From assembly GCF_000302595.1 (NCBI RefSeq), contig NZ_JH947125.1:828299-892298 (forward strand): DNA of 64,000 nucleotides, given 5' to 3'. The first letter of the stretch is position 1. Every line of letters starts with the position of its first letter. The DNA is from Pedobacter arcticus A12 (GTDB lineage: Bacteria > Bacteroidota > Bacteroidia > Sphingobacteriales > Sphingobacteriaceae). The notes beneath the pieces were generated by a model that was not told the origin of the DNA, did not search any database, and saw nothing but the letters and a program-made list of their open reading frames with translations. The translations under genes were made by a program, and so were the position numbers. Positions 1,733 through 42,536 of the stretch are shown here, one piece after another.

Positions 1733-1760
1733 GCTAAATCGTTTTTTTTGTATAATTTAG
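1733..1760 (+). promoter_or_regulatory. Putative LacI-type operator and promoter for the SGNH/GH92 genes (site 1)
   Basis: The core GCTAAATCGTTTTT lies at 1733-1746. A TTTG (-33 like) at 1730-1733 overlaps its edge, and TAATTTAG (-7 like, one mismatch to TAnnTTTG) follows at 1753-1760 after 19 bases. The gene starts at 1827. The same arrangement recurs at 10309. Confidence 0.6.
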
Positions 1761-1826
1761 CACTATCCAATTATAATGTCAGAGATACGTCTTTAAAGCT
1801 ATACGTCTGAAAAACTAAATGACAAT

Positions 1827-3233
1827 ATGAAACAAAGAATTGCTTCAATTATAATCATGTTAGCCCTTTCATCAGCCATGAATGCTCAAGAGGTTAAACC
1901 TTTTAATGATGGAGACAAAATTGCTTTTGTTGGCAATAGCATAACGGAAGCAGGATTTTATGAAGCTAATATTTGGCTTTACTACATGACTCGTTTTCCC
2001 GAAAAAAGAATTAAGATTTTCAATAAAGGGGTTGGGGGCAATGTTGCAAGTCAGATCAATTACAGATTAGAAGATGACGTATTGGTTGAAAAACCAAATG
2101 TGGTGTTGATCACTTTTGGGATGAATGACAGTAAGTATATGGAGTATATGAATGCTGTTCCAAGCGCTAAAGCGGTAAATGCAATTGTAAACGAGTCAAG
2201 AATTGGCTTTGAAGGTATTGAGGCAAAACTGAAGCAAGTGCCTAATGTTCGAAAAATCATTATGTCGTCGTCTCCTTACGATGATGGGATGGAGAAACAG
2301 AAAAGTGATGAACATATCCTATTTGGCAAAGTAGCCACTATGGAGAAAATAACCGATTTTCAGAAAGCCATCGCTAAAGAAAATAACTGGGAGTTTTTGG
2401 ATATTATGCATCCAATGATGGAGATTAACCAACAACAGCAAAAGATTGACCCAAAATATACACTTACTGGTAGTGATAGAATCCATCCGGGAGAAGAAGG
2501 GCATTTTATTATGGCTTATCTTTTTTTGAAAGCCCAGGGATTTGCAGGTAAACCTATCGCAGATGTAGAGATTGATAGCAAGTCAAAAAAAGTGTTGAAG
2601 GAAGTGAATAGCAATATATCTTCGTTGACATTTAATCAAAATGGTTTAAGTTTCGATTACTTAGCTAAATCACTGCCTTTTCCAATTGATACCATTGAGC
2701 ACAGATGGTTAAATCCAGATAAGCAGTCTAACGCTTTAAAGGTTATTCCGTTTATAAAAGAAATGAATCAGGAGGTTTTGAAAATTAATAAGCTCAAAAG
2801 TGGTTTGTACAATTTAGCAATAGACAACAGAATGATAGGTGTATTTACCGCGGAACAGTTGCAAACAGGTGTTAATTTAGCGAATTATCCAAATACCCCT
2901 CAATATTTACAGGCAACTAACGTGATGTATCTTAACAGACAGCGTAAAGAAACAGAAGATCAATTGCGACAATATGATTGGTTAAAATTTAATTTTTTGA
3001 AAGAGAAAGGTTTGCTTTACAAAGACGATATGGCAACACTAGACACGCTGCACAAGCAAGCGAAAAAAGACTGGGCTGTGGCAAGTAAGATGGCGAATTA
3101 TGAATACAGCCGTTTTCCGGAAGTGAGGGCGATGTGGAAAGATAATATGGATATATTGACGGATAAAATATATAGTATAAATAAACCTATAAAACGTCAA
3201 GTAAGACTTGAATTATTAAATATAACAAATTAG
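1827..3233 (+). CDS. SGNH/GDSL-family hydrolase, secreted
   Basis: A 468-residue protein with an N-terminal Sec signal peptide ending near SSAMNAQ. The SGNH blocks are visible: block I FVGNSITEAG (Ser nucleophile, GNS rather than GDS), the oxyanion-hole segment GVGGNV, block III FGMND, and a catalytic DxxH in DRIHPGEEGH. The family contains carbohydrate acetylesterases, lipases and thioesterases. In this glycan-degradation context, removal of acyl groups from sugars is the likeliest role. The ~200-residue C-terminal extension is unusual for a minimal SGNH enzyme and I do not recognise it. It is the first gene behind operator site 1 and precedes a GH92 gene by 126 bases. Confidence 0.75.
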   Translation: MKQRIASIIIMLALSSAMNAQEVKPFNDGDKIAFVGNSITEAGFYEANIWLYYMTRFPEKRIKIFNKGVGGNVASQINYRLEDDVLVEKPNVVLITFGMNDSKYMEYMNAVPSAKAVNAIVNESRIGFEGIEAKLKQVPNVRKIIMSSSPYDDGMEKQKSDEHILFGKVATMEKITDFQKAIAKENNWEFLDIMHPMMEINQQQQKIDPKYTLTGSDRIHPGEEGHFIMAYLFLKAQGFAGKPIADVEIDSKSKKVLKEVNSNISSLTFNQNGLSFDYLAKSLPFPIDTIEHRWLNPDKQSNALKVIPFIKEMNQEVLKINKLKSGLYNLAIDNRMIGVFTAEQLQTGVNLANYPNTPQYLQATNVMYLNRQRKETEDQLRQYDWLKFNFLKEKGLLYKDDMATLDTLHKQAKKDWAVASKMANYEYSRFPEVRAMWKDNMDILTDKIYSINKPIKRQVRLELLNITN

Positions 3234-3359
3234 AAAGAAGCCTTGATGAGGTCAAATTTAGGTTTTTTTTAGAATAGCACTGCTTAAATTCAATGCTATC
3301 TTGTATTATAAATATTTATGATTTAATATTTTTTTTTAATTAATTACCAGTTCAAAAAG

Positions 3360-5725: not shown

Positions 5726-6519
5726 ATGGATGTTTTTACTTGTAAGGCTGAAAACTTATATTGCCACGGTTGATACGGCATTAACTTACAGCCTTCAATG
5801 AAAAAGGAGATTAAGGTGGTTGTAATTGAACCAGAAGGATATAATAGTATAGAACGGTTTCCGTTGGTTTACTTACTTCATGGTTTTTCTGGAAACTATA
5901 AAGATGTAACAAAAAATGTTCTGGCTATTGAAGAGCTGGCAGATTAATATCATATTATTATTGTTGTTGTCAGGATCGTAATTACGCAAGTTGGTGTTTT
6001 TGATAGCCCCGAACAGGCAGAAGCCCGATATTAAACCTATATCTCATAAGAATAGTTGACTTGGATAGATGCGCATTACAAAACCATCGCTTATAAAAAC
6101 GCTAGAGGGATTACCAGTGTATCTTGCTTTCAAATATCAAGATGTTTTTTAGCGTTGCTAGAAGTATGATCGGAGGAGCCGATCTGCATCCTTTTCCTAA
6201 TAACTGGGATATCGCCAAGCTTTTTGGCACTCATGCTGTTTATTCGGAAAGGTGGGAACAGAATAGCGTAGTTAATTTAAGGCATTTACTCACACCAAAT
6301 TCACTTAAAATCATTAGTCAATGTGGTGATGATTTTTATAAGGTGGATGTAGCGCTACATGATAAATTATTGTTTGATAACATTCCTCATACTTTTATAA
6401 CAGGGCTAGGTGGGTATACTTGGTCACATATCCTTAAATACCAGCTATTGTTTATGGGTATAAATTTTAAAATTCGCCAATTAAAATATATTATCGATTT
6501 TTTATTTCAAATTTGCTAA
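5726..6519 (+). pseudogene. Decayed alpha/beta-hydrolase esterase (FrmB/tributyrin-esterase-like)
   Basis: Recognisable esterase segments appear in shifting frames with internal stops. In order they are VVIEPEGYNSIERFPLVYLL, HGFSG, YHIIIVV, DSPEQAEARY, WIDAHYKTIAYKNARGIT, LAFKYQDVF, then a 131-codon open stretch from 6124 containing GGADLHPFPNNWDIAKLFG and LHDKLLFDNIPHTFIT. Several frameshifts and stops break it. The GxSxGG nucleophile elbow expected between the ...NARGIT and LAFKYQDVF segments has been lost, so no active enzyme can be made. It probably encoded an acyl-sugar esterase of the neighbouring operon. The 6124-6519 open stretch should not be annotated as a separate gene. Confidence 0.8.
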
Positions 6520-6528
6520 ACTGTTTTA
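6515..6528 (+). promoter_or_regulatory. Putative LacI-type operator (site 2)
   Basis: The sequence GCTAAACTGTTTTA matches the shared operator at 13 of 14 positions (TG instead of CG at the centre). It lies 85 bases before the sterol-desaturase-like gene at 6613 and overlaps the tail of the esterase pseudogene. I see no convincing -7 element downstream of it. Confidence 0.45.
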
Positions 6529-6612: not shown

Positions 6613-7359
6613 ATGCTTAAAACTTGGTTTTTAAATTTTATTATTTATTTCATATCTTCAGGTTTTTTTTATCTTTTTTTTTCTTTTTTTTTGAAGAAAA
6701 ATCAATCAAAGAAAATTCAATTATTAGATGCTCCAATAAGTCATAGATTTAGAGAGTTTAAAAATTCTTTTATAGCGATTATCTTTTCTACAAGTATTTC
6801 TTTATTAATTATAAACCCATATACCATTCCATACACATTAATGTATATGGACGGCGATAAGTACGGAATACCATATTTTATATTCAGTATTTTAGTGTGT
6901 CTTTTTTTGCATGACACCTATTTTTATTGGACTCATAGGTTACTGCATCGGCCTTTTTTTCGTTTCGTACATAAAGTTCATCATCAATCAACTAATCCTA
7001 CTTCGTGGAGTGCTTTCGCTTTCCATCCTATAGAGGCAATTATCCAGGCATTCATCCTATCATTGTTGCCGTTTATTATTCCTTTACATCCCATAGCATT
7101 ACTTGTTTTTTTTATTATTATAATGATTTGGGATGCCTATGGTCATTCAGGTTTCGAAATTTTTTCTAAACGTTTTTTGATGTCTAAATGGGGGAGGTGG
7201 ATTAACTCATCTATTACTCATAATATGCACCACGAATTTTACGAAGGTAATTATGGGTTATACTTCAGATTTTGGGATATTTGGATGAAAACGTCACATC
7301 CAAAATATAACGACCATATTGTTAAGGTAAAAGACAGAGAGGCGAAAAAGAAACCATAA
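6613..7359 (+). CDS. Sterol desaturase / fatty-acid hydroxylase superfamily membrane protein
   Basis: A 248-residue multi-pass membrane protein carrying the di-iron histidine clusters of the superfamily: HDTYFYWTHRLLH, FVHKVHHQS and HNMHHEFYEGNYG. Members hydroxylate or desaturate lipids (sterols, fatty acyl chains, carotenoids) using O2 at the membrane surface. Hydrophobic helices flank the His clusters, including a very Phe-rich first segment. The gene is visibly more AT-rich than the glycan genes around it, as is its partner gene 23 bases downstream (Lnt-like). The pair suggests lipid or lipoprotein modification. The exact substrate is unknown. Confidence 0.85.
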   Translation: MLKTWFLNFIIYFISSGFFYLFFSFFLKKNQSKKIQLLDAPISHRFREFKNSFIAIIFSTSISLLIINPYTIPYTLMYMDGDKYGIPYFIFSILVCLFLHDTYFYWTHRLLHRPFFRFVHKVHHQSTNPTSWSAFAFHPIEAIIQAFILSLLPFIIPLHPIALLVFFIIIMIWDAYGHSGFEIFSKRFLMSKWGRWINSSITHNMHHEFYEGNYGLYFRFWDIWMKTSHPKYNDHIVKVKDREAKKKP

Positions 7360-8961: not shown

Positions 8962-8993
8962 TTTGCTAAATTGATTTAGTTGCTATATTTTAG
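8962..8993 (+). promoter_or_regulatory. Putative LacI-type operator and promoter (site 3)
   Basis: The sequence GCTAAATTGATTTA at 8965-8978 is a variant of the shared operator. TTTG at 8962-8965 and TATTTTAG at 8986-8993 are spaced 20 bases apart, like a Bacteroidota promoter. The gene begins at 9016. Confidence 0.5.
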
Positions 8994-10450: not shown

Positions 10451-12184
10451 ATGAGAAATAATTGCTCCTTACTGGTGATTTTATTTTTAGTCACTGCGGT
10501 TCTCTATTCTTGTCAAAAAGAAAACTTTTTAGACAAAACACAGTCAACCGAACTCAATGAAAAGACTGTCTTTTTAGATAGTGCTTATACCATGGATTTC
10601 TTGACAGGTATTTATACCGATGTGGGATTTAGCACCAGCCCTACTAGGTTTGGTAATAGCGGTTTGGACGCGTCTTCAGATGAGTCCGAAGGCCCGGCTT
10701 CTGGGTCAGTTAATACTTATATCCAATTCGCCACTGGTACGGTTAACTCTAGCTTAATCACGACTGATGCATGGCGTATTCCTTATGCTAACATCAGAAG
10801 GGTTAATAAATTTCTTTTTCACTTGCCCGATGCTAAATTCGGTAACGCTTTAAAAGTAAGGACCAAAGCCGAGGCTAGATTTTTAAGGGCCTGGTATTAC
10901 ACATTGCTGTTGCAGCATTACGGTGGCGTGGCTATTATAGGTGATAGTACTTTTAATTCAAAAGACAGTATCCCTACTGTTAGAAGAACATACGAAGAAT
11001 GTGTTAACTATATTGTGAAAGAATGCGATGCGGCGGCACAGGATCTTCCCTGGATCCAAGATGGTGAAGATTACGGAAGAGTTAATAAAGCTGCGTGTTT
11101 GGCGTTAAAAGCTAAGGTATTATTATACGCAGCTAGCCCACTGTTCAACGGTGGAGGCATAGCTACTGCGGAACCACTTAAATCTGTGGTTGCTTATCCT
11201 GCTTTTGATAAACAAAGATGGAAATTAGCGGAAGATGCCGCGGCTGAAGTGCTAAACTCCGGACAATATTCTTTGTTATTAGATAATGCAACTGAGCCTG
11301 GATATGGTTTCTATAAAATCTTTATAAAAAGAAAGAGTACTGAATTGATTTTTGCCAGAATGGTGGGCGACAATAATCAGTTAGAGAGTGTTTGGCTTCC
11401 GCCTACTCACGGTGTTACCAATCCGGCAGGATATCCTTATTTAGAAACTGTTAATGCTTTTGGGATGAAGAACGGCCTTGCCATAGACGCTTCCGGCTCT
11501 GGTTACAATCCTCAAAACCCATACGCAAATAGAGACCCAAGGTTAGCCAATAGTTTTGTGCGTGATCAATCGCTAGTTTATCATTATCCTGAATTAGCTC
11601 GAATTCCAGTAAATATTTTTGTTGATAAAACGGATCCAAATAAGGTTGTTTCTGGTCAAGATGCTATTTATAAAGGGACGCCAACAGGCTATTATACTTA
11701 TAAGATGGTAGATAGAGAGGTGGTTTCCAACTGGTTTACTACAGCCACAGAGAGATGCCTTCCATTGATAAGATATGCTGAAGTTCTTTTGAATTTTGCG
11801 GAAGCAAGAAATGAGTTCTTGACTGCTCCGGATCAACAAGTTTATGATGCGGTTGAGAAAATTAGAGAGCGGGCAGGTCTAACACCTTTTGCTTTACCAG
11901 CTGGTTTGTCGCAACTTGAAATGCAGAAAATAATACGCAACGAGCGACAGAAAGAATTGGCTTTTGAAGGTCACAGATTCTTTGATGTGAGAAGATGGAA
12001 AATTGCAAGCCAAACAGAAAACCAAATGATGCATGGTACCGAGCCTGTTAAAACAGCTTCCGGCACAACTTACAATACCGTAGAGGTAAGAAAACACACG
12101 TTTACAGATAAAATGTATTTGTGGCCGCTACCTGAAAGTGAAATTAAAAAGTCAACGGAGCTATTGCAGAACCCTGGTTATTAA
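10451..12184 (+). CDS. SusD/RagB-family outer-membrane glycan-binding lipoprotein (copy 1)
   Basis: A 577-residue lipoprotein (VLYSC, Cys21). SusD proteins cap the SusC transporter and bind oligosaccharides at the cell surface. The family's TPR-like segments are recognisable: EARFLRAWYYTLLLQHYGGV, NKAACLALKAKVLLYAASP, and the C-terminal NERQKELAFEGHRFFDVRRW ending in LLQNPGY. It opens an operon without the usual SusC gene directly upstream; two small lipoprotein genes follow before SusC copy 1. It is clearly paralogous to the SusD at 16847. Its natural partner could be either SusC in the operon. Confidence 0.93.
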   Translation: MRNNCSLLVILFLVTAVLYSCQKENFLDKTQSTELNEKTVFLDSAYTMDFLTGIYTDVGFSTSPTRFGNSGLDASSDESEGPASGSVNTYIQFATGTVNSSLITTDAWRIPYANIRRVNKFLFHLPDAKFGNALKVRTKAEARFLRAWYYTLLLQHYGGVAIIGDSTFNSKDSIPTVRRTYEECVNYIVKECDAAAQDLPWIQDGEDYGRVNKAACLALKAKVLLYAASPLFNGGGIATAEPLKSVVAYPAFDKQRWKLAEDAAAEVLNSGQYSLLLDNATEPGYGFYKIFIKRKSTELIFARMVGDNNQLESVWLPPTHGVTNPAGYPYLETVNAFGMKNGLAIDASGSGYNPQNPYANRDPRLANSFVRDQSLVYHYPELARIPVNIFVDKTDPNKVVSGQDAIYKGTPTGYYTYKMVDREVVSNWFTTATERCLPLIRYAEVLLNFAEARNEFLTAPDQQVYDAVEKIRERAGLTPFALPAGLSQLEMQKIIRNERQKELAFEGHRFFDVRRWKIASQTENQMMHGTEPVKTASGTTYNTVEVRKHTFTDKMYLWPLPESEIKKSTELLQNPGY

Positions 12185-12208
12185 CCTGATGAAAAAGAAA
12201 ATAAAATC

Positions 12209-12658
12209 ATGAAAAATAAAAAAACACTAACGTTTTTATGTCTGAGCTTTTGCGCCATAGCGATTTTTTTTAGTGCATGTAAAAAAGAAAAAACCGGTCA
12301 AACCACTGAAGCTACTAAGGATATCTCAGGGACGTGGCAGATTTCTCAATTGACAAGAAATGGCGAGGATTTAACCCAACGCATGGATTTAAGTAAGTTT
12401 AGGATTGTGTTTAACGAAGACAAAACTTACACACTTGTTGATAAATTGGCATTTGCTGTTGAGGAAGGCGGTGTTTATAGTTTGGATGATCCTCAATATC
12501 CATTCTCTATTATTTTAACACCACAGAGTGAACCAGATGCCAGTAAGGTTGTAAAATTTCAGTTTCCTGTAGTAGAAGGTAAAAGAAGGATGAGTTTAAC
12601 GATGAGTATGGGTTGTTCAAGCAATACTTATAATTACGTATTTGAAAAGTTACAATAA
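12209..12658 (+). CDS. Small lipoprotein, lipocalin-like (DUF5004-like)
   Basis: A 149-residue lipoprotein (FFSAC, Cys24). After the signal it contains ISGTWQISQLTRNGEDLT, a lipocalin-like opening seen in small Bacteroidota lipoproteins; I tentatively place it with DUF5004. Such genes often sit in Sus operons as accessory surface lipoproteins, with no proven activity that I know of. It lies 24 bases after SusD copy 1 and one base before the next gene, so translation is probably coupled. Calling it a glycan-binding accessory would be inference from context only. Confidence 0.6.
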   Translation: MKNKKTLTFLCLSFCAIAIFFSACKKEKTGQTTEATKDISGTWQISQLTRNGEDLTQRMDLSKFRIVFNEDKTYTLVDKLAFAVEEGGVYSLDDPQYPFSIILTPQSEPDASKVVKFQFPVVEGKRRMSLTMSMGCSSNTYNYVFEKLQ

Positions 12659-12659
12659 C

Positions 12660-13640: not shown

Positions 13641-13714
13641 TAGTTGCTTAAATTTTTTCTTTACTAGGGATTGATTGAAACTTCCCTAAAATCTAAAACT
13701 AATTGATCTTAAAC

Positions 13715-16834: not shown

Positions 16835-16846
16835 AATCCATTAGAC

Positions 16847-18547: not shown

Positions 18548-18580
18548 CGGTAAGTTCTCAAAAAATTAAATTAATAGACG

Positions 18581-30263: not shown

Positions 30264-32447
30264 ATGATTTTTAAAAAAATATTGATATTAATATATTTTT
30301 CTATCGTTACGAGCTTGTGTGTCGCCCAAAAACGTGAGGCTACTACTAGTTATGCTCAAAAAGTAAATACATTAATAGGCTCAGAAGGCAAGGGAGCTAA
30401 TTCAAGCGAGTCATATTTGGAAGCAGGTTACACTTTTCCAGGAGCCATGCACCCCTTTGGAATGGTTCAATTTACACCGACTTTTTTTGAACCCAATAAG
30501 GGGTTTGTAATTAATCAATTGAGCGGCGCCGGGTGTGAGCACATGGGCAATTTGCCATTGATGCCTTTGTGTGGCCCGCTCAATAAATCTCCAAATGATA
30601 TGAAAGCATATCACCCTAATTTTAAGGTGAAAAATGCTTATGCAGGGTTCTATGAATCTGAAACAGAAGATGAGATCAATAGCGCCTTAGTGGTGACCAA
30701 GCGTTCAGGAATGGCAAAGTTTAATTTTCCAGTCCACCAGAACAAAGGAACTATTGTTATTGGTACGGGTTTAAATGCTACTAAAGTAAATGACGCTTCG
30801 GTAAAAATTACAAGTAATTCAAGTTTTGAAGGCTTTGCTGACGGTGGCTCTTTTTGCGGTTCGGCAGTGAGTTATAAAATTTATTTTGTGGCTCAGTTTA
30901 ACGCTGCATCTTTAGAAAACGGAACTTGGCAGAAAGATAGCATCTTGAGAGGAAGTAAAAGTGCCAATGGAGAAGGAACAGGTGTTTATTTTACTTTTAA
31001 AAATAATGCAAATCCATTGCTTTATAAAATAGGTGTGTCTTACGTGTCTTTAGAAAATGCCAGAGAGAATTTAAAGGCGGAGAACCCAAATTGGAATTTT
31101 GAAGCTGTGAAGAAAGCAACTGTAAGTGAATGGAACAAACAACTGAATAAAATTGAAGTAAAGGGTGGTTCAGCAAATCACACCGCTCAATTTTATACGC
31201 ATTTATACCATGCGCTCACTCATCCAAATTTATATAGCGATGTAAATGGAGATTATGTGGGAGGAGATGATAAAATACACAATGCCAAGGGATTTAACTA
31301 TTACACTTCTTTTAGTAACTGGGATACATACCGTACGCAAATTCAGCTCATCAGTATGTTAGCTCCAAAAGAGACTTCTGATATGATGCAGTCCGTTATT
31401 TTGTTTGCTGAGCAGAGTGGTGGAGGTTTCCCCCGTTGGGTGATGGGAAGTACGGAGACAGGTATTATGCAAGGAGATCCAACCTCGGCAATGGTGTCTG
31501 TAGCCTATTCGTTTGGAGCAAGAAATTTCGACATAAAAAAAGCGCTCGAAATTATGCGGAGAGGAGCCGAGATATCGGACACTAAATCTCAAGGTCAGCT
31601 TACGCGACCTTTTTTGGAAGAATATTTACAAAAAGGCTACATGAATGCTTCTATGATGTTAGAGTATACCACAGCAGATTTTGCGATTGCAGCATTTGCT
31701 AAGCAAGCATTTAACGATATGGATACCTATCATAAATTTTTGAAACAGGCGCAAAACTGGAAAAACTTATACAATCCGGAAAGAAAATGGTTGCAATCCA
31801 GAAACCCTGACGGAACTTGGAGAAAATATGACGAAGATTTTAGAGAGGCCTCTTTCAAAAATTATTTTTGGATGGTTCCTTATAACCTTAAAGGTTTAAT
31901 TGATACCATCGGTGGGAAGGATTTTGCTGAGAGAAGGTTAGATGAATTTTTTATAAAGTTGAACGCAAGCTATTCTCAAGAGTGGTTTGCGGCCGGTAAT
32001 GAGCCCGATTTTCAAGTGCCATGGGTTTACAACTGGACAAATAATCCGTATAAAACGCAGTCTTTGGTTAAACGCATTATCAAAGAGCAGTATGCCAATA
32101 AAAATAATGGATTGCCTGGGAATGATGATTTGGGAGCAATGGGAGCTTGGTACGTATTTGCTAATATTGGTTTATACCCGATGATTCCTGGGGTGGCTGG
32201 TTTTACTATCAACGGACCTTCGTTCAAAGAAATAAAACTTCATCTCCCGTTAGGGGTAGTGAATATCAAGGGTGGTGATTTGGAGAAGCCTTTTATCAGT
32301 TCATTAAAAATTAATGGGAAAGACTATGACGCTACGTGGATTAAGTGGCAAAATCTAAAAAAAAGCAGTACGTTGGAGTTTAAATTGAGTGACCAACCAA
32401 ACAAAACGTGGGGAAAAGCAACAACACCTCCCTCATACGATAACTAA
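30264..32447 (+). CDS. GH92 alpha-mannosidase (copy 2), secreted
   Basis: A 727-residue protein with a signal peptide ending near CVAQK. Family segments are VNTLIGSEGKGANSSESYLE and TFPGAMHPFGMVQF in the N-terminal sandwich. In the catalytic domain they are FAAGNEPDFQVPWVYNW (acid region) and LPGNDDLGAMGAWYVFANIG (base region), ending with GLYPMIPGVAGF. It lacks the lipobox seen in copy 1, so it is probably periplasmic. The two copies differ enough (GNED versus GNDD motif, spacing) to suggest different linkage preferences. It heads a five-to-seven-gene block with GH130, GH78-like, acetylesterase, permease and LacI genes. Confidence 0.92.
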   Translation: MIFKKILILIYFSIVTSLCVAQKREATTSYAQKVNTLIGSEGKGANSSESYLEAGYTFPGAMHPFGMVQFTPTFFEPNKGFVINQLSGAGCEHMGNLPLMPLCGPLNKSPNDMKAYHPNFKVKNAYAGFYESETEDEINSALVVTKRSGMAKFNFPVHQNKGTIVIGTGLNATKVNDASVKITSNSSFEGFADGGSFCGSAVSYKIYFVAQFNAASLENGTWQKDSILRGSKSANGEGTGVYFTFKNNANPLLYKIGVSYVSLENARENLKAENPNWNFEAVKKATVSEWNKQLNKIEVKGGSANHTAQFYTHLYHALTHPNLYSDVNGDYVGGDDKIHNAKGFNYYTSFSNWDTYRTQIQLISMLAPKETSDMMQSVILFAEQSGGGFPRWVMGSTETGIMQGDPTSAMVSVAYSFGARNFDIKKALEIMRRGAEISDTKSQGQLTRPFLEEYLQKGYMNASMMLEYTTADFAIAAFAKQAFNDMDTYHKFLKQAQNWKNLYNPERKWLQSRNPDGTWRKYDEDFREASFKNYFWMVPYNLKGLIDTIGGKDFAERRLDEFFIKLNASYSQEWFAAGNEPDFQVPWVYNWTNNPYKTQSLVKRIIKEQYANKNNGLPGNDDLGAMGAWYVFANIGLYPMIPGVAGFTINGPSFKEIKLHLPLGVVNIKGGDLEKPFISSLKINGKDYDATWIKWQNLKKSSTLEFKLSDQPNKTWGKATTPPSYDN

Positions 32448-32468
32448 TTGGAATTGGATTTTATATTT

Positions 32469-33596
32469 ATGTATAAGCAATTTTTAACAATTATAATTTT
32501 TGCGATAGCTATTGGATTAAACGGTTGTGTGCAAAAGAAAATGGTAACAGGCCAAAGCTGGTCATTCCAGCCGTTTGTGCGTCCTGTCAGCTATCCAGTG
32601 ATTTCTCCGGATTCAAATACCACCTTTTTAGATCCTATAAGTGGCAAAGTAATCCGCTGGGAAGCTAATGATACTTTTAATCCAGCTGCTACGGTAAAGG
32701 GTGATAGTATTTACGTGATTTATAGAGTCGAAGATAAATCTGGTTTAGGAATAGGGGAGCGTACCTCACGACTTGGTTTAGTCGCCAGTGCAGATGGTTT
32801 AGCCATGAATCGTAGAAGTCAGCCAATACTTTATCCTGCTAATGATAGTCAAAAGGAGAATGAATGGATGGGTGGTTGTGAAGATCCCAGAGTGGTAATG
32901 GCAACTGATGGCACTTACGTTATGATGTACACCCAATGGAATAAAAAGGTGCCCCGACTAGCTGTTGCTACTTCTAAAGATTTAGAAAACTGGGACAAAC
33001 ATGGGCCTGTATTTAATCAAGCCTACGGCGGAAAGTTTGCGGACTTGGCAAGTAAATCTGCATCAGTAGTTACGACTGTTGAAAATGGTAAGCAGGTAAT
33101 TGCTAAAATAAACGGTAAATTTTATATGTATTGGGGAGAAGAGTTTATCAATCTTGCTACATCTGATGATTTGATTAACTGGACTCCAGAATTGGATGAA
33201 AGTGGAGATTTGAAAAAAATAATTCTCCCGAGAAAAGGTTATTTTGATAGCCAACTCACTGAATGTGGCCCTCCTGCAGTACTAGCCGATAATGGGATTG
33301 TATTGCTATACAACGGAAAAAATTTGGAAGGCAAAGACGGAGACCCCAATTATACAGCTAAGACTTATGCAGCAGGACAATTATTATTTGATGCCAAAAA
33401 ACCAGGGAAATTATTGAATAGATTAGATAAACCTTTCTTTGTGCCAACAGAATCTTTTGAAAAAAGTGGTCAATATCCGTCGGGGACGGTTTTTGTAGAA
33501 GGTTTGGTGTACTTTACAGATAAATGGTTTTTGTATTATGGCTGTGCCGATTCTAAAGTAGGAGTAGCTGTTTACGATCCCCCTAAAATTAAATAA
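32469..33596 (+). CDS. GH130 mannoside phosphorylase/mannosidase, lipoprotein
   Basis: The ATG at 32469 gives 375 residues with a lipobox (GLNGC, Cys20); a TTG upstream at 32448 is less likely. The five-bladed propeller family signature GGCEDPRVV carries the catalytic Asp, and LTECGPPAVL lies deeper in the fold. Many GH130 enzymes are cytoplasmic beta-mannoside phosphorylases, but a lipoprotein signal is incompatible with using cytoplasmic phosphate. Some exported Bacteroidota members hydrolyse beta-1,2-mannosides, so that activity is my preferred guess. It directly follows GH92 copy 2 (21 bases), consistent with sequential trimming of a mannan. Confidence 0.85.
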   Translation: MYKQFLTIIIFAIAIGLNGCVQKKMVTGQSWSFQPFVRPVSYPVISPDSNTTFLDPISGKVIRWEANDTFNPAATVKGDSIYVIYRVEDKSGLGIGERTSRLGLVASADGLAMNRRSQPILYPANDSQKENEWMGGCEDPRVVMATDGTYVMMYTQWNKKVPRLAVATSKDLENWDKHGPVFNQAYGGKFADLASKSASVVTTVENGKQVIAKINGKFYMYWGEEFINLATSDDLINWTPELDESGDLKKIILPRKGYFDSQLTECGPPAVLADNGIVLLYNGKNLEGKDGDPNYTAKTYAAGQLLFDAKKPGKLLNRLDKPFFVPTESFEKSGQYPSGTVFVEGLVYFTDKWFLYYGCADSKVGVAVYDPPKIK

Positions 33597-33781
33597 TGCG
33601 AAATTTAGACAAACGGCTTTTACTTTGTGCTTTCTTTGGGCATTTTTGAAAAAAACACTAGAAATTGCCATTATAAAATATACATGTCAGGAATTCTTTT
33701 TTTTAAACACGATTTTTTGTACCTGAAATAACAAATACGGCTATTGGCTGTACAACAATATATTAACAATAATTTTCAAAT

Positions 33782-36142
33782 ATGATGAGATGTTTTTTTA
33801 TTTTATTTTTACTTTCTTCTTTAATAACTAATAACCATGGATATGCTCAATCTGTAAGCTATACAAAATTGCAAAAACCATGGAATTCGCAATGGATCGC
33901 AGCGCAAAATGATAGCGGAATAGCATATGGGGTATATTATTTTCGGAAAACCATCGATCTAACAACAAAACCAGATTCCTTTATCGTCAATGTATCGGCA
34001 GATAATCGATATAAATTATACGTTAATGGTAAATTGGTTTCATTGGGGCCAGCTCGTGGCGATACATACTTCTGGAATTACGAAACTGTTGATATCGCTC
34101 CATACTTATACAATGGAAAGAACACAATAGCCGCCCTCGTCTGGAATGAAGCGGAGCATCGTCCAGAAGCTCAAATATCTGTTCGTACCGGTTTTATTTT
34201 GCAAGGTAACTCCAAGGAAGAGGAAATACTCAACACAAACGATTCTTGGAAATGCATCAAAGATGAAGGTCATCAACCTATACCCGGATATTTTTTCGCG
34301 GCCAGTAAAGGAGAGATGGTTGATATGAATAAAACTATCAAAGGGGATTGGACAAAACCCGGTTTTAATGATATTGGCTGGCCCAAAGCCAGTAAGGTTG
34401 AGGACGGAAAGCTAAAAGGAATGGAATGGGGAATTGGTTGGGCATTGGTGCCTTCCTCTCTGCCTCAAATGGAAATGACCTATCAACGCATACCGAAGTT
34501 GCGTAAAGCAGTTGGAGTAAGTGTTCCTATCGCATTCCCTGCTAAAAAAGTTTCGTTTACCATACCTGCAAATACAACAGCTACACTTTTGTTAGATCAA
34601 ACTTATGAAACCAATGCTTACGTAACCTTAACTTTTAGTGGTGGTAAAGATGCAGGGATTTCCTTAGGATACGCCGAGTCGTTATACAAAAAAGGCACCA
34701 AAGGAGTTGAAAAAGGCAATCGTGATGAGATTGAAGGTAAAGAATTTATTGGGAGAACTGACAGCCTTATTGCAGATGGAACCAAAGAGCAGTCTTTTAC
34801 TACTATGAATTTTCGCACCTATCGCTACATTAGGTTGATCGTACAGACGAAAAACGAACCTTTGGTAATTGAAGATCTGTACGGTACTTTTACCGGATAT
34901 CCTTTTAAAAGAGCTACAGTTTTCAATACCGATAATAAGGAAATCAAACAAATATTGGATATCGGCTGGCATACGGCTAGGTTAAATGCAATGGAAATTT
35001 ACACCGATTGTCCTTATTATGAGTTGTTGCAATATATCGGTGATACCCGCATTCAGGCGATGGTTTCCTATTTTAATAGTACTGATGACCGGTTGGCCAG
35101 AAATGCCTTAAATCTTTTTGATCATTCGCGACTTGCTGAAGGGATAACTAGGAGTAATTATCCTTCAAAAGGAACTCAGATAATTCCTGGATTTTCTTTA
35201 TGGTATATCGGGATGCTTCATGATTATTGGATGTATAAAAATGACAGCGATTTTATAAAGAATAAATTAGTGGGAGAACGGGCCATATTAGACTTCTTTA
35301 GCAAGTACCAACAAGCCGATGGTTCTTTAGCAAATTTCCCTTATTGGGGATTTGTTGATTGGGCAGGTAACTTATGGGGCGAAGTTAAAGATCAAGATGG
35401 CAGTGCCGCCATTTACGATTTGCAGTTACTTTGGGCATACCAGTCCGCCGCAGAAATGGAAGCAAAAATTGGTCTGCAAGATTATGCTGATATATATAAT
35501 AATAAAGCGAAGCAGTTGAAAGCCACCATCCAAAGCAAGTACTGGAACGCGACAAAAAAATTATATGCTGATACAAAAGAGCAGACAGGCTATTCACAAC
35601 ATGTTAATTCTCTTGCTATACTCACAGGTATGCTAAGTGATACAGCTATGGAAACCGTAGCTAATAATATGCTAAATGATGGAAATATTACCAAATGCTC
35701 TGTATATTTTAAATATTACTTACATAAAGCACTGGTTAAGGCAGGTTTGGGAGATAATTATATGTCGTGGCTGGATATCTATCGCGAAAATATAGCCATG
35801 GGACTTACCACCTGGGCAGAATATTCTGACGTGAACACTTCCCGATCAGATTGCCATGCTTGGGGCAGCAGTCCTAATGTAGACTTTTTTAGAGTGGTTT
35901 TAGGTATCGATAGCGACGCTCCTGGTTTCCAAAAAATAAAGATAGAACCACATTTAGGAACAATTACCAAAGTTAGCGGAGAAATGCCCCATCCAAATGG
36001 GAAAGTTGCTGTGGCTTACGCGTTTAATAAAGGGAAATGGAAAATAGACATCAGTTTCCCTAAAAATACAACTGGTACATTTGTATGGAAAGGAAAAACT
36101 TATGAGCTTAAAGCTGATAAAAATGTGTTTGAATTCCAATGA
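33782..36142 (+). CDS. GH78-like alpha-L-rhamnosidase (copy 2)
   Basis: A 786-residue secreted protein (signal ends near HGYAQS), collinear with the copy at 25498. Shared blocks include VSADNRYKLYVNGKLVSLGP, LLDQTYETNAY, YTDCPYYELLQYIGD, GLTTWAEYSDV and SDCHAWGSSPN. In the catalytic segment the residue after Glu is Leu rather than the Arg of copy 1 (ELLQY versus ERLQY), so substrate preference may differ. It lies between the GH130 and acetylesterase genes on the plus strand, while copy 1 is on the other strand beside the FG-GAP protein. Rhamnosidase activity is the family expectation. Confidence 0.82.
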   Translation: MMRCFFILFLLSSLITNNHGYAQSVSYTKLQKPWNSQWIAAQNDSGIAYGVYYFRKTIDLTTKPDSFIVNVSADNRYKLYVNGKLVSLGPARGDTYFWNYETVDIAPYLYNGKNTIAALVWNEAEHRPEAQISVRTGFILQGNSKEEEILNTNDSWKCIKDEGHQPIPGYFFAASKGEMVDMNKTIKGDWTKPGFNDIGWPKASKVEDGKLKGMEWGIGWALVPSSLPQMEMTYQRIPKLRKAVGVSVPIAFPAKKVSFTIPANTTATLLLDQTYETNAYVTLTFSGGKDAGISLGYAESLYKKGTKGVEKGNRDEIEGKEFIGRTDSLIADGTKEQSFTTMNFRTYRYIRLIVQTKNEPLVIEDLYGTFTGYPFKRATVFNTDNKEIKQILDIGWHTARLNAMEIYTDCPYYELLQYIGDTRIQAMVSYFNSTDDRLARNALNLFDHSRLAEGITRSNYPSKGTQIIPGFSLWYIGMLHDYWMYKNDSDFIKNKLVGERAILDFFSKYQQADGSLANFPYWGFVDWAGNLWGEVKDQDGSAAIYDLQLLWAYQSAAEMEAKIGLQDYADIYNNKAKQLKATIQSKYWNATKKLYADTKEQTGYSQHVNSLAILTGMLSDTAMETVANNMLNDGNITKCSVYFKYYLHKALVKAGLGDNYMSWLDIYRENIAMGLTTWAEYSDVNTSRSDCHAWGSSPNVDFFRVVLGIDSDAPGFQKIKIEPHLGTITKVSGEMPHPNGKVAVAYAFNKGKWKIDISFPKNTTGTFVWKGKTYELKADKNVFEFQ

Positions 36143-36296
36143 TATTCTATTTAAGATATATTTTAAAATAAGGCGATTGTACCTTTTTTTTAAAATTTAA
36201 CCTGCATTCAGGCATTTAAACCTAATCGGTTAACAACCAACATACATAGCCTTAAAAAATTAGGGCTATAAATCAATATCAATTGATCAATACAAA

Positions 36297-37787
36297 ATGA
36301 AAATAATTAGAACAACAATTTTTTTAAGCTTAATCATTTTATTAATTAGTCAGAGTTTCGCCGAAAGCAAAGACAGCTTAATGTTGTCCTCCGTATTGCA
36401 GAGCAATATGGTACTGCAACAGAATAAGCCTTTTAAAATTTGGGGCAGTTCGTCGCCAAATACGGAAATCTACATACAGGCCGATTGGATGCAACATCCG
36501 TTAAGTGTTACATCAAGTACTAATGGTGATTTCTTGGCGATTATTAATATACCAAAGGCAAAAAAAGGAGACTTCACTAAACACAGCGTAACCGTGAGTT
36601 CTGCTAAAAATACAATTAAACTAAATAATCTTTTGATTGGTGATTTATGGCTTTGTAGCGGACAATCAAATATGCAATTCTCTGTAAAGGAGATGAAAGG
36701 TGCCGATGAGGAGATATCATTTGCAAATCAACCAAATATTCGGCTGCTAAACGTTGCTTTAAATTTTAGTGCTCAACCTATCAATACAATAGATGGCAAA
36801 TGGGTAGAATGTTCGCCGGAAACAGCACAGAAATTCAGTGCAGTAGGGTATTCATTTGGTAAAGAGTTATACGAAAGTTTAAATATTCCGATTGGACTCA
36901 TATTCTCTGGAATAGGTGCTTCAGGAGTCCAAGCTTACATCCCACAGGATGTTTTAGAAAACGACACGCTTTTAAACAGCGTTTATTTACAGCCGTATTT
37001 ACAAAGTCCAAAATCAAAAGAAAAGATTGACGGCGGTTTCTCTTTTGAAAAAGTAATGCGTCCTTCTCTGTTATATAACGCTATGATCAATCCTTTAGTT
37101 AATTTATCAATACGTGGGATTTGCTGGTATCAGGGCGAGGCAAATCATGCAGAAAGAAAGAGTTATACTATGGCCACACAAGAGATGATTAAATCTTGGC
37201 GAGAGAGGTTTGGACAGGGAGAATTGCCTTTTTATTATGTGCAGATTGCCCCGTATGGTCATGAAAAAGAAAATCCAGCGTTAGCTAAAGACGCTTTCTT
37301 TAGAGAAGCCCAAGCGAAAATTTCTGCGCTGAACAATACAGAAATGGTAACTACAATTGATGTTGGTGACGCAAAGGACCTTCATCCAAAAAACAAGAAA
37401 CCCGTTGGTATTCGTTTAGCTAAAACCGCTTTGAATAGGATTTACGGACACTTAGATGTAGTTTTTAAAGGTCCCGAGTTTAATTATGTAGAGTTTAAAA
37501 AGAAACAAGCTATTATCCATTTTAAACCAGAGACGTTAGGCTCAGGCTTGAATACAAATGATGGAGCAGCGCCGTTATTTTTCTTCATAGCTGGCTCAGA
37601 TCAGATTTTCTATCCGGCGCAGGCCGAGATTATAGAGAATGTGGTTAAATTAAAATCTACCAAAGTAAAGCAACCTGTATCGGTTAGGTATGCCTTTTTT
37701 AACTATCCAGTTACCAATTTACAGAATAGAGAAGGTTTTCCAGTTGTTCCTTTTAGAACGGATAATTGGCAAGAAGCAACTTATTGA
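36297..37787 (+). CDS. Sialate-O-acetylesterase-family carbohydrate esterase
   Basis: A 496-residue secreted protein (signal ends SQSFAES). It opens with SVLQSNMVLQQNKPFKIWG, typical of Bacteroidota SASA-domain esterases, and the Ser nucleophile is in GDLWLCSGQSNMQF. Further blocks are GLIFSGIGASGVQAYIP, GICWYQGEANH and the likely Asp/His segment DVGDAKDLHPKNK. Such enzymes remove O-acetyl groups from sialic acid or other sugars. No sialidase occurs in the window, so deacetylation of an acetylated mannan or rhamnan is more plausible. It lies in line with the preceding GH78-like gene, 154 bases apart. Confidence 0.88.
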   Translation: MKIIRTTIFLSLIILLISQSFAESKDSLMLSSVLQSNMVLQQNKPFKIWGSSSPNTEIYIQADWMQHPLSVTSSTNGDFLAIINIPKAKKGDFTKHSVTVSSAKNTIKLNNLLIGDLWLCSGQSNMQFSVKEMKGADEEISFANQPNIRLLNVALNFSAQPINTIDGKWVECSPETAQKFSAVGYSFGKELYESLNIPIGLIFSGIGASGVQAYIPQDVLENDTLLNSVYLQPYLQSPKSKEKIDGGFSFEKVMRPSLLYNAMINPLVNLSIRGICWYQGEANHAERKSYTMATQEMIKSWRERFGQGELPFYYVQIAPYGHEKENPALAKDAFFREAQAKISALNNTEMVTTIDVGDAKDLHPKNKKPVGIRLAKTALNRIYGHLDVVFKGPEFNYVEFKKKQAIIHFKPETLGSGLNTNDGAAPLFFFIAGSDQIFYPAQAEIIENVVKLKSTKVKQPVSVRYAFFNYPVTNLQNREGFPVVPFRTDNWQEATY

Positions 37788-37887: not shown

Positions 37888-39117
37888 ATGAATTCAAAAA
37901 TAGCATTCACAGAGAAGAAATTTCTAGTTGTATTGGTATTTGTAACCTCAGTTTTCATGCTGTGGGGTATAGCTATCACCATGGGTGATGTGCTTAATAA
38001 GCATTTTCAAGAAGTACTTAACTTATCAAAGTCACAATCTGGGTTGGTTCAGTTTTCAATATTTGGTGCTTATTTCGTAATGGGGATTCCAGCCGGCTTG
38101 TTTATGAAAAGGTTTGGATATAAAAAGGGAATTTTGTTAGGATTATCTCTGTTTGCATTAGGATGCTTTCTCTTTATCCCTGCCGCAAACACAGCCTCAT
38201 TTGGTTTCTTCAGAGTTGCACTTTTTATTTTGGGCTGTGGTTTATCTACTTTAGAAACTGTGGCTCATCCATTTATTGCCTCTCTAGGGGATCAGCGTTC
38301 TAGCGATAGACGCATAAACTTTGCGCAATCTTTTAACGCATTAGGAACAATCATTGGTCCGGCCATCGGGTCGTATTTTCTACTTAGTGCAAGTACCGGA
38401 AGTGAAGGACTTTACTCGGTTAAGGTTTTGTATTTGGCTATAGGGATAGGTATCACTATCATAGCGATCTCTTTTTCTTTTATAAAAGTGCCCTCGCTTA
38501 TTAATCCTCATGCCACTACCGCTGTTAATGGAGAAGCTTTTAATATCGACCATGCACCACAGAAAAGCCTTTTTCAGCATAAGCATTTTGTATGGGCTGT
38601 AGTAGGTCAGTTTTTTAACGTGGCGGCACAAAGCGGCACATGGGCATTCTTTATTAATTATGGTCACGAAGTAATGGGTTTTGAAGAGGTAAAGGCTGGT
38701 AACTTCTTAGTTCTATTCATGGTTATGATGTTAATAGGGAGATTTGCTGGTACTTTTCTGATGCGTTTTATAGCACCCAATAAATTACTGGCTGCTTTCG
38801 CTCTGTTTAACGTTTTAATGTGCGTTATCGTAGCACAAGGATTTGGATGGGTTTCATTTGGTGCATTGTTGATGATCAATTTCTTCTTTGGTATAATGTA
38901 TCCAACAATTTTCAGTTTGGGTATTAAAAACTTAGGGAAACACACAGAGCAGGCATCGTCTTTCATATCAATGGGAGTAGTTGGAGGTGCATTTTTTCCT
39001 ATGATTATGGGATTAGTCGCAGATTACGATGTTGCTAAGTCGTATTATTTACCTATACTGTGTTATATGGTAATTTTTTATTTCGGATTTAAATTTCAGC
39101 AATTGAAAAATTCTTAA
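37888..39117 (+). CDS. FucP-type sugar:H+ symporter (MFS)
   Basis: A 409-residue inner-membrane permease with about 12 hydrophobic helices and the N-terminal MGDVLNKHFQEVLNLSKSQS pattern of the FucP/NagP/glucose-galactose branch of MFS. Conserved segments include FSIFGAYFVMGIPAG, KRFGYKKGI and ETVAHPFIASLG. It should carry the monosaccharide released in the periplasm (mannose, rhamnose or fucose; not decidable here) into the cell, where the ROK kinases could phosphorylate it. It follows operator site 7 and precedes lacI by 105 bases. Confidence 0.88.
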   Translation: MNSKIAFTEKKFLVVLVFVTSVFMLWGIAITMGDVLNKHFQEVLNLSKSQSGLVQFSIFGAYFVMGIPAGLFMKRFGYKKGILLGLSLFALGCFLFIPAANTASFGFFRVALFILGCGLSTLETVAHPFIASLGDQRSSDRRINFAQSFNALGTIIGPAIGSYFLLSASTGSEGLYSVKVLYLAIGIGITIIAISFSFIKVPSLINPHATTAVNGEAFNIDHAPQKSLFQHKHFVWAVVGQFFNVAAQSGTWAFFINYGHEVMGFEEVKAGNFLVLFMVMMLIGRFAGTFLMRFIAPNKLLAAFALFNVLMCVIVAQGFGWVSFGALLMINFFFGIMYPTIFSLGIKNLGKHTEQASSFISMGVVGGAFFPMIMGLVADYDVAKSYYLPILCYMVIFYFGFKFQQLKNS

Positions 39118-40245: not shown

Positions 40246-40292
40246 TATTTTTAACTGTAGGCAGTAGTAATTCTTGGTTATTTTCTATATTT

Positions 40293-40306
40293 GCTAAAAC
40301 GTTTTA
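40293..40306 (+). promoter_or_regulatory. Putative LacI-type operator (site 8)
   Basis: The sequence GCTAAAACGTTTTA contains the perfect palindrome TAAAACGTTTTA. It lies between lacI and the ROK gene at 40386, 80 bases before its start codon. TTTG at 40290 overlaps it; the -7 element is unclear. Confidence 0.55.
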
Positions 40307-40385
40307 ATATACCGCATTAGTATTACCAAAACATAGTATAAATTAATTTAAAGCCATATTGCAATATGGTTTCTATCACAGTTTA

Positions 40386-41252
40386 ATGAATTCGAGAATT
40401 ATTTTAGGAGTAGATATCGGTGGATCTCATATCACGTGTGCGTTGGTGAATCTAGAATCGAACACGATAATAGAGAATACTAAATTTAGATTAAGTGTTG
40501 ATTCTGGAGGAGCGGAGATTGATATTGTTAATAGGTGGATTACTGCTATAAAAGAATCTCTTAAGTTATTCGGCCCCGAGTTAGTAAATAAGATTGGGAT
40601 ATCTATGCCCGGTCCATTTCAATATGATAGTGGGGTTTGTTTAATGAAAGAACAAAGCAAATATGACGCTTTATATGGACTAAACATTAAAGATATATTG
40701 GCCCAAAGATTGGGTTTAGACTCTAACCAAATCCGATTTGACAACGATGCTAGTTGTTTTTTACGAGGTGAAGTACTTTCAGGCGCTGCGAAAGGTGTGA
40801 ATTGCGCACTGGGTCTTACGCTAGGGACAGGTCTTGGATCCGCAAGGTTTTCTAATGGATTAGTGGAAGACGCTAACCTGTGGAACTGTGAATTTAAAGA
40901 GAGTATTGTTGAAGAATATTTATCTACAAGATGGTTTATTAAAAGATATTTTGAACTATTAGGGATTGATATTTTAAATGTCAGGGATTTAGTTGAGGAA
41001 GTTCTTCACCATAAGACAGTAGCTTTAAGCGTATTTGAAGAGTTTGGAAAAAATTTGGGAGCTTTTCTAGTTCAGTTTATTAATAATGAGCCTCTTGTTG
41101 AAGTAGTAGTGCTAGGAGGGAACATCGCAAAAGCTTATTATTTATTTGGAAGTGAAACTGAAAAGTATTTGCAGTCTGCCGGAATAGATGTAAAATTAAA
41201 ACAAGCGGAATTAGGTGAAGAGGCTGCATTAATCGGTGCTGTCGCAGAATAG
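40386..41252 (+). CDS. ROK-family sugar kinase
   Basis: I use the ATG at 40386 (288 residues), which matches the start of the paralogue at 735; a TTG lies 27 bases upstream. The phosphate loop GVDIGGSHIT, catalytic Asp in DNDASCFLRGE, and TLGTGLGSARF are all intact, so this copy should be an active cytoplasmic sugar kinase. The zinc-binding CxCGxxGC motif of glucokinase-type ROK proteins is missing. The transported sugar, probably mannose or a related hexose, is the expected substrate. It is controlled by its own operator (site 8). Confidence 0.87.
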   Translation: MNSRIILGVDIGGSHITCALVNLESNTIIENTKFRLSVDSGGAEIDIVNRWITAIKESLKLFGPELVNKIGISMPGPFQYDSGVCLMKEQSKYDALYGLNIKDILAQRLGLDSNQIRFDNDASCFLRGEVLSGAAKGVNCALGLTLGTGLGSARFSNGLVEDANLWNCEFKESIVEEYLSTRWFIKRYFELLGIDILNVRDLVEEVLHHKTVALSVFEEFGKNLGAFLVQFINNEPLVEVVVLGGNIAKAYYLFGSETEKYLQSAGIDVKLKQAELGEEAALIGAVAE

Positions 41253-41437
41253 AGAATATATTTTGAATCTTGACACTCGCTAAGGCTGACGTTGAAATCT
41301 ATCTTTGGAAATAGCATAAGCATGAATGAATGTATGAGATAAATGTTTTTAAGTTTTCTTCTTGTTTTTAATTGTAGTTAAACTAAGTTTTTGCTGTAAA
41401 TTAATTTTTAAGAGCCTCGGATAGATTCTTTAAATGA

Positions 41438-42469
41438 TTATATTGAATCTCTTTTAGTATAATAAAAAGGGACTTCTATATGTCTGTGTGAGTTTTCTAA
41501 AATCATATTTGCAGCAGCCTCTCCAATGAATTTAAAATCAGTGGAAATTGTTGTTATCCCATTAAAAATGTATTTTTTTATTGGAGTTTCGTTATACGAG
41601 ATAATTCCCACGTCTTTTCCTACTGTATATCCTAGTTCAACAATGTGTTCAAAAAGTATGGGCAGTTGTTCTTCCAATAAGTTTATAAACACATCTCCGA
41701 TACTCACCGAGTTTTTTAAAACACAACCAATTATCTCATAATTGAAGCCATAATGTTTACAAAACCTTTCAAATCCCACTGTTATTTCAATGGGGAAGTA
41801 GCCAGAATCTGGGAAAATCAATTTTATAGTTGCATATTTTTTTAATTGTTGCCTAGCTTGTACAAGCGCTCGATAGATATCTTCGGTGAAGTTTTCAAAG
41901 ACTACACCGTACCCGCCGATAATACCTCTGACATTTTTTCCCATCAATATCAGTTTTTCGGTTGGGAGTGTATTTAGAATTTTGTGCACATCATCTCCAC
42001 CACTAGTAAAGTGAGGGATGATTACATAATGCGTATATTCCTTTTTATGTGATTGGATTAACTTCTTGAATAAATTAAAATCATTGTTGTAAATGTGCAA
42101 ATCAATAAGCGCATCCTCTCCAAGTTTCTCGATAAACGCATCGTAGATCATCTTCTTTGGATTACTAAGTTTATTAAAAAGCACTAATATCTTGAACTTA
42201 CATCTATGTTCAGAAGTGCAAAAGTAATATCCTTTACCGGGGAAAGAATCTATAACCCCAATCTGTTTTAGGTATCGGTAGCTTTTTTGAATAGTTTCTC
42301 TTGATATATCTATTTTATAGCTCACCTCATTAAGGGAAGGAAGTAGATAATCATGCTCAATTACTCCAGCTTCTAAGGCTATAATCAGGGAATTTGCTAA
42401 CTGTAAGTATTTTGGAATAGCCGATTTTTGATCAATTATCAAGTATTCAAATAAGGGAGAGTCTCTCAT
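41438..42469 (-). CDS. GntR-family regulator with LacI-like effector domain
   Basis: A 343-residue protein. Residues ~10-80 form a GntR winged helix (AIPKYLQLANSLIIALEAGV, LPSLNEVSYKIDISRETIQK, YRYLKQIGVIDSFPGKGYYF). The C-terminal domain is periplasmic-binding-protein-like (VGKDVGIISYNETPIKKYIF, GITTISTDFKFIGEAAANMI), an arrangement like AraR. Such regulators respond to sugars. It is transcribed divergently from the propeller lipoprotein at 42755, with operator site 9 between them. A second regulator at the end of the locus suggests control of a subset of genes or cross-control with LacI. Confidence 0.88.
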   Translation of the reverse strand: MRDSPLFEYLIIDQKSAIPKYLQLANSLIIALEAGVIEHDYLLPSLNEVSYKIDISRETIQKSYRYLKQIGVIDSFPGKGYYFCTSEHRCKFKILVLFNKLSNPKKMIYDAFIEKLGEDALIDLHIYNNDFNLFKKLIQSHKKEYTHYVIIPHFTSGGDDVHKILNTLPTEKLILMGKNVRGIIGGYGVVFENFTEDIYRALVQARQQLKKYATIKLIFPDSGYFPIEITVGFERFCKHYGFNYEIIGCVLKNSVSIGDVFINLLEEQLPILFEHIVELGYTVGKDVGIISYNETPIKKYIFNGITTISTDFKFIGEAAANMILENSHRHIEVPFYYTKRDSI

Positions 42470-42522
42470 TCATTGAAGATCATTGGTTACAATAAATATT
42501 AACAAAGTAGTTTTCTAATTTA

Positions 42523-42536
42523 GCTAAATCGTTTTA
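42523..42536. promoter_or_regulatory. Putative LacI-type operator (site 9)
   Basis: The sequence GCTAAATCGTTTTA is exact and embedded in TTTAGCTAAA. It is 53 bases upstream of the GntR gene (minus strand) and about 220 bases before the lipoprotein gene at 42755. Which gene it controls is not clear. Confidence 0.5.

What the first reader, a model, noticed from the sequence alone, without database searches (positions are those of the whole stretch)
1733..42536. One palindromic operator motif at nine sites defines a 40-kb LacI-type regulon
Near-identical sequences, core GCTAAAWCGTTTTA, occur at 1733, 6515, 8965, 10309, 30032 (minus strand), 30214, 37798, 40293 and 42523. The copies either side of the lacI gene contain the perfect CG-centred palindrome TAAAACGTTTTA, the symmetry LacI-family proteins use. 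Almost every transcription unit of the glycan region has one upstream. Seen directly; the regulator assignment is inference.
Basis: partly seen in the sequence, partly recalled or inferred. Interest (0 to 1): 0.7.

Follow-up and report, generated by a model that had tools for sequence, protein, structure and literature searches.

The report
LacI-type operator set controlling mannan genes
Ten near-identical DNA switches sit in front of the genes of a large sugar-degradation cluster, and comparison with related bacteria indicates that the cluster's own LacI-type repressor binds them to control mannose-polymer digestion as one unit.

Summary
All nine sites are at the stated positions. A tenth, exact copy lies just outside the window (about -1967), upstream of a GH38 alpha-mannosidase. 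All seven exact copies of TTGCTAAAWCGWTTTW in the 4.23-Mb genome lie in this 44.5-kb region. Leave-one-out, each of the ten sites outscores every position in 199 kb of background. The shape, an even and mostly CG-centred palindrome, is that of LacI-family operators. The regulator assignment is well supported by comparison: within 1.5 kb of lacI relatives 49 of 80 loci hold a site, against 0 of 24 for GntR relatives elsewhere. Orthologues of the same transcription units carry the site in other genera, in one genome on another contig than lacI. The conserved half-site overlaps a TTTG (-33-like) box, which suggests steric repression relieved by a mannose-type ligand; binding, direction of control and ligand are inferred. 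This is a sound new member of a known kind (local LacI sugar regulon); five literature searches (listings) showed no description of it. Side lead: the regulon region holds second copies of the lipoprotein enzymes Lnt and Lgt.

The parts
1731..1746 (+). operator, upstream of GDSL esterase (1827) and GH92 (3360)
   Evidence: leave-one-out
6513..6528 (+). operator (TG-centred), upstream of fatty-acid hydroxylase (6613) and Lnt-like gene (7374)
8963..8978 (+). operator (TG-centred), upstream of Por-secretion-tail protein (9016); a site precedes the orthologue in L125
10307..10322 (+). operator, upstream of the SusD/SusC block (10451-21628); sites precede the SusD orthologue in L125, L126, L129
30032..30047 (-). 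operator, upstream of the minus-strand unit RicinB/DUF4185 - rhamnosidase-like - FG-GAP (29958-23697); a site precedes the orthologue in L124
30212..30227 (+). operator, upstream of GH92 - GH130 - rhamnosidase-like - SASA esterase (30264-37787); sites precede GH92b in L124 and L127
37796..37811 (+). operator, perfect TAAAACGTTTTA core, upstream of MFS sugar permease (37888) and lacI; sites precede the MFS orthologue in L080, L128, L137
39032..39047 (+). weak candidate operator inside the 3' end of the MFS gene, upstream of lacI
   Evidence: score 20.0 against 22.6-28.1 for the ten
40291..40306 (+). operator, perfect core, between lacI and ROK kinase (40359); same core between lacI and the ROK gene in L144, L146, L201
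42521..42536 (+). operator between gntR (minus) and ricin-B lectin protein (42755); a site precedes the lectin orthologue in L132
39223..40245 (+). LacI-family regulator, predicted to bind the operators; helix region SPTTVSFVLNG (helix position recalled from the family)
   Evidence: Pfam LacI plus periplasmic-binding domains; translation; orthologues
41438..42469 (-). GntR-family regulator with partial periplasmic-binding domain; considered and disfavoured as reader of the motif
735..1601 (+). ROK-family protein, directly after GH38 (L014:14147-16726), whose unit follows the tenth site at about -1967
10451..21628 (+). two SusD/SusC pairs with DUF5004 and DUF4961 (outer-membrane glycan uptake)
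30264..37787 (+). GH92, GH130, rhamnosidase-like and SASA esterase genes
37888..39117 (+). MFS sugar permease, FucP type
40359..41252 (+). ROK-family protein, probable sugar kinase

Best explanation
The ten sites are operators of one LacI-family repressor, encoded at 39223-40245. It controls a mannan- or mannoside-degrading polysaccharide-utilisation locus of about 44.5 kb. A dimer binds the even palindrome whose full form is TTGCTAAAWCGWTTTAGCAA. Its better-kept half overlaps a TTTG (-33-like) box of the promoter, with the -7 box about 20 bases further on, so the bound protein would block RNA polymerase. Mannose, or a phosphate or oligosaccharide of it made by the cluster's GH38, GH92 and GH130 enzymes and imported by the FucP-type permease, would release it. 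The motif and its link to LacI are shown by comparison; binding, repression, substrate and ligand are inferred.
For: Clustering: 7 of 7 exact sites of the genome lie in the locus; leave-one-out 10 of 10 above 199 kb background. Link to LacI: 103 hits in 80 loci against 2.85 permuted; within 1.5 kb of the gene 49 of 80 lacI loci against 0 of 24 GntR loci. In the whole fetched stretches (up to 8 kb each side) 51 of 80 lacI loci hold a site at score 15 and none of the 80 shows a gntR homologue. Regulon conservation, each in at least one of three other genomes: sites precede orthologues of the GH38/GDSL, GH92, Por-tail, SusD, RicinB/DUF4185 and GH92-GH130 units (L124-L127, L129, L130), and the MFS, ROK and lectin units in L080, L128, L137, L082, L132. 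In L124/L125 and L137 the site-bearing genes are on other contigs than the lacI orthologues, so control would be in trans. Position: of 167 unique sites at score 13 in relatives 156 are outside my called frames; of these 149 have a downstream gene within 400 bp, median 62 bp away. On the 118 with one possible direction, the upstream half-site is better kept (G 0.83, C 0.79) than the downstream one (G 0.45, C 0.36) although the matrix was symmetric, and T precedes it. TAnnTTTG-like boxes (up to 1 mismatch) peak 19-21 bases on: 25 against about 4 expected; offsets 17-22: 33 against 8.2; n = 99 sites. LacI-family operators are mostly even palindromes with a CG centre, mostly 140-30 bp before the start codon (PMC4052901, section 9 read).
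Against: 29 of 80 lacI loci have no site at score 15 in the stretch fetched, and L079, whose LacI is the best non-self match (63%), has none at score 12 within 10 kb, although its genome has sites on other contigs. Two of ten window sites lack the CG centre. Only 30% of relatives' sites have a -7-like box at offsets 16-23, against 17% at 36-43; other peaks occur (10 at offset 12, 6 at 14, and 33 at -7, where the box merges with the TTTG itself); the expectation came from mononucleotide shuffles. In the window 5 of 10 sites have the box. Of 17 same-genus genomes searched, 1 has a match at E <= 1e-70 (51%), and that genome has no motif match at up to 1 mismatch. Per-genome pattern counts exceed their control in 5 of 8 genomes clearly (8, 16, 14, 4, 6 against 1, 2, 3, 0, 3) but not in the other three (5 against 4, 1 against 3, 0 against 3), with a control that is itself flawed. 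Some loci in the relatives' set were fetched because they held near-matches. No expression or binding data.
Confidence: 0.85

Rival explanations
1. The GntR-family protein at 41438-42469 reads the motif. In Bacteroides the mannose regulator ManR (BT2103) is a GntR-family protein that controls alpha-mannosidases and a SusCD pair.
For: GntR lies in the cluster, with the 42523 site 54 bp from its start; ManR precedent in PMC3878776 (passages).
Against: 0 of 24 loci (+-1.5 kb) around GntR homologues other than the window's own hold a site at score 13. Six wider loci (L138-L143, 117 kb; one of them the own genome's second GntR) hold one hit at symmetric score 13, about 9 kb from gntR, and two at score 14 with the asymmetric matrix, 8-9 kb away. 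The genome of G037 has this LacI and sites beside it but no GntR at E <= 1e-15. None of 80 lacI loci has gntR nearby, yet 51 hold sites.
Confidence: 0.06
2. The motif is the promoter itself, for example of an alternative sigma factor, and not a repressor operator.
For: The TTTG overlap and the orientation toward the gene in relatives; an ECF sigma and FecR pair lies about 6-8 kb before the window (L014:7784-9555).
Against: The CG-centred dyad is not expected of a promoter, and a symmetric matrix recovers it; sites track lacI; the ECF pair sits beside its own SusCD pair. Whether sites track the sigma gene was not tested.
Confidence: 0.05
3. Another LacI-family protein of the genome reads the motif, with the local one as a bystander.
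For: Seven LacI-type helix-turn-helix matches in the genome.
Against: The other six read ATVDRV, GTVDRV, IGTVDRV, STVSRA or SSVSRA where this one has TTVSF; the nearest paralogue found is 28% identical; most site-bearing lacI loci have TTVSF or TTISF, though loci without sites have it too.
Confidence: 0.03

Closest known systems
LacI-family local sugar regulons (PMC4052901; passages and section 9)
   Same: even palindrome with CG centre, sites mostly within about 140 bp of the start codon, regulator inside its regulon, one sugar pathway
   Different: ten sites over 44.5 kb in front of a complete SusCD polysaccharide locus; the operator half-site merges with a Bacteroidota TTTG box. That paper lists five LacI groups for mannose (ManR), whose lineages I did not see, so orthology to one of them is not excluded
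Bacteroides ManR (BT2103) mannose regulon (PMC3878776; passages)
   Same: controls alpha-mannosidases, a SusCD pair and cytoplasmic mannose steps together
   Different: ManR is GntR-family; here a LacI-family protein is predicted to do the job, which suggests non-orthologous replacement
Bacteroides HTCS_Man regulons (PMC3878776; passages)
   Same: predicted to control alpha-mannan loci
   Different: hybrid two-component sensors with direct-repeat motifs, not a one-component repressor with a palindrome

Membership tests
LacI-family local regulon | regulator has LacI helix-turn-helix and periplasmic-binding-like sensor domain | tested here: met
   Pfam LacI 37.1 bits (cut-off 27) and Peripla_BP_3 88.3 bits (cut-off 26.5)
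LacI-family local regulon | even palindromic operator with central CG | tested here: met
   8 of 10 window sites CG-centred, 2 TG; in 118 oriented sites of relatives C 0.93 and G 0.77 at the centre
LacI-family local regulon | sites upstream of functionally linked sugar genes, near start codons | tested here: met
   all ten lie upstream of genes of the locus; relatives median 62 bp
LacI-family local regulon | site conserved with the orthologous regulator across genomes | tested here: met
   49 of 80 lacI loci within 1.5 kb at score 13; 103 hits against 2.85 expected; 29 of 80 loci without a site at score 15
LacI-family local regulon | autoregulation | tested here: inconclusive
   lacI lies 105 bp behind the MFS gene that follows the 37798 site, and a weak site is at 39034; 22 sites lie within 350 bp upstream of lacI in relatives
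LacI-family local regulon | DNA binding released by a sugar ligand | not testable with these tools
   needs purified protein
GntR-family ManR regulon | motif accompanies the GntR homologue | tested here: not met
   0 of 24 GntR loci outside the window within 1.5 kb
GntR-family ManR regulon | orthology of the window's GntR to BT2103 | not tested
   BT2103 was not compared

The most novel reading that the evidence does not exclude
The repressor commands not only mannan-digesting enzymes and SusCD but also locus-specific lipoprotein-modifying enzymes (Lnt-like at 7374, Lgt-like at 22374, with a fatty-acid hydroxylase), so the cell would change how its surface glycan-binding lipoproteins are acylated when this polysaccharide is present.
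Probability: 0.2. Interest if true: 0.7.

Novelty: new member of a known kind. Interest (0 to 1): 0.42.

Why it matters
It gives a testable one-component control model for a whole alpha-mannoside-type locus in Sphingobacteriaceae and kin, where Bacteroides is reported to use GntR and hybrid two-component regulators for comparable tasks (PMC3878776, passages). The operator lets unlinked genes of the same pathway be found in related genomes, and it marks unexpected genes (Lnt-like, fatty-acid hydroxylase, Por-tail protein, and by position Lgt-like) as possible parts of the response.

Tried and rejected
The loose pattern (3 mismatches) was near chance in the window and was not used. The reversed-pattern control printed by the genome search and my reversed matrix (48 against 103 at score 16) are unsuitable: the motif read backwards contains TTTTGCTAAATCG and so matches real sites; I replaced it by column permutation and Markov resampling. 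I looked for a link between LacI helix residues and variant centres (CCGG or CTGG palindromes near L093, L097, L214): too few cases to claim. Ten non-locus near-matches were read: six lie inside long frames (L006, L011, L012, L033, L034, L036), L032 in a short frame, L013 at a frame edge, L007 and L035 between genes; by eye none fronts an evident mannose gene, and no family search was made on them. Literature: (listings; one search showed 20 of 28, 10 of 17) gave no title on this LacI motif in Sphingobacteriaceae; only open-licence papers are held. PUL together with prolipoprotein diacylglyceryl transferase: 0 papers.

Full report
Observation. The tenth, an exact copy 1967 bases before the window, precedes a GH38 alpha-mannosidase followed by the ROK gene at 735. 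Exact copies of TTGCTAAAWCGWTTTW occur 7 times in the 4.23-Mb genome, all between 826.3 and 870.8 kb of contig C1. A sequence-only profile ranks nine of the ten training sites 1-9 and the tenth 13th. Leave-one-out matrices place each site above every position of 199 kb of background.

Surroundings. The sites precede GH38-ROK; GDSL-GH92; fatty-acid hydroxylase-Lnt; a Por-tail protein; the SusD/SusC block; a minus-strand unit of RicinB/DUF4185, rhamnosidase-like and FG-GAP genes; GH92-GH130-rhamnosidase-like-SASA; MFS-lacI; a ROK protein; and a lectin protein. Units are inferred from spacing and strand. GH38, GH92 and GH130 point to mannosides, with possible rhamnose decorations; this substrate is inferred from families.

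Which regulator. LacI relatives at E <= 1e-70 were found in 20 of 80 genomes searched, own genome included, and the best 80 named loci were kept out of 566 confirmed. The window-trained matrix gives 103 hits at score 16 in those 80 loci (1.28 Mb), against a mean of 2.85 for 20 column-permuted matrices and 4.0 for 10 Markov resamplings. 51 of 80 loci hold a site at symmetric score 15; 29 do not; none of the 80 shows a gntR homologue in the fetched stretch. A matched test near the gene (1.5 kb either side) gives 49 of 80 lacI loci and 0 of 24 GntR-homologue loci at score 13; the window's own GntR locus, with two sites, is not counted in the 24, and about half of the 24 are close (48-54% identical) homologues. 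The perfect core between lacI and the ROK gene recurs in Pedobacter ureilyticus, P. xixiisoli and Sphingobacterium arenae. Orthologous units in three other genomes carry the site in front. GntR homologues exist in 12 of 13 genomes tested, own included. The genome's other six LacI-type matches have different helices.

Mechanism. In relatives 156 of 167 unique sites lie outside called frames; for 149 with a gene within 400 bp the median distance is 62 bp. Oriented by the downstream gene (118 unambiguous sites), the upstream half is better kept than the downstream half even though the matrix was symmetric, and T-rich sequence precedes it, giving TTTGC. TAnnTTTG, the -7 box of sigma A in flavobacteria (PMC9723704, passages), peaks 19-21 bases further on, with a second smaller peak at offset 12. 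The operator therefore appears to share bases with the -33 box (that box as TTTG is recalled, not read). Occupation should exclude polymerase; release by a mannose-type ligand is inference. Only about 30% of sites show the -7 box, so this step is moderate.

Known relatives. LacI-family operators are mostly even palindromes with central CG (1251 of 1303 regulators even; 1173 with CG; PMC4052901, section 9). In Bacteroides, mannose is predicted to be handled by the GntR-family ManR and alpha-mannan by hybrid two-component systems (PMC3878776, passages). Here a LacI protein appears to take that role. No title on this motif appeared in the listings.

Side lead. The locus holds second copies of Lgt and Lnt; the other copies are on contigs C2 and C3. 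The Lnt-like protein is 20% identical to the other copy and 51% to its counterpart in L125, and has WSE, YDK and SICNE stretches that look like the catalytic Glu-Lys-Cys (that assignment is recalled). The Lgt-like protein is 48% identical to the other copy, and the 14 Lgt homologues in lacI loci score no higher against it than against the other copy, so a dedicated Lgt clade is not shown.

Noticed in passing
7374-8885 and 22374-23573: Second copies of lipoprotein enzymes Lnt and Lgt inside the glycan locus, next to a fatty-acid hydroxylase (6613-7359); Lnt-like counterpart in L125 (51%), Lgt-like genes in 14 of 80 lacI loci.
   Followed up: partly
5760-6500: Esterase-like stretch that seems broken into fragments, between GH92 and the 6515 site; looks like a decayed gene (by eye, no family search).
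   Followed up: no
L093:6362, 6402 and 9290; L097:4749; L214 about 1332 and 1398 bases after the lacI start: Near more distant lacI genes the palindrome centre is CCGG or CTGG instead of WCGW, possibly a related specificity class.
   Followed up: partly
41438-42469 and 45023-47713: GntR-family gene near lutABC-like lactate genes; a lutA homologue (75%) also lies near the GntR homologue in L140, so this GntR may serve another pathway.
   Followed up: no
L014:7784-9555: ECF sigma and FecR pair beside its own SusCD pair, about 6-8 kb before the window.
   Followed up: no
39034: Weak extra operator-like site inside the 3' end of the MFS gene, upstream of lacI.
   Followed up: no
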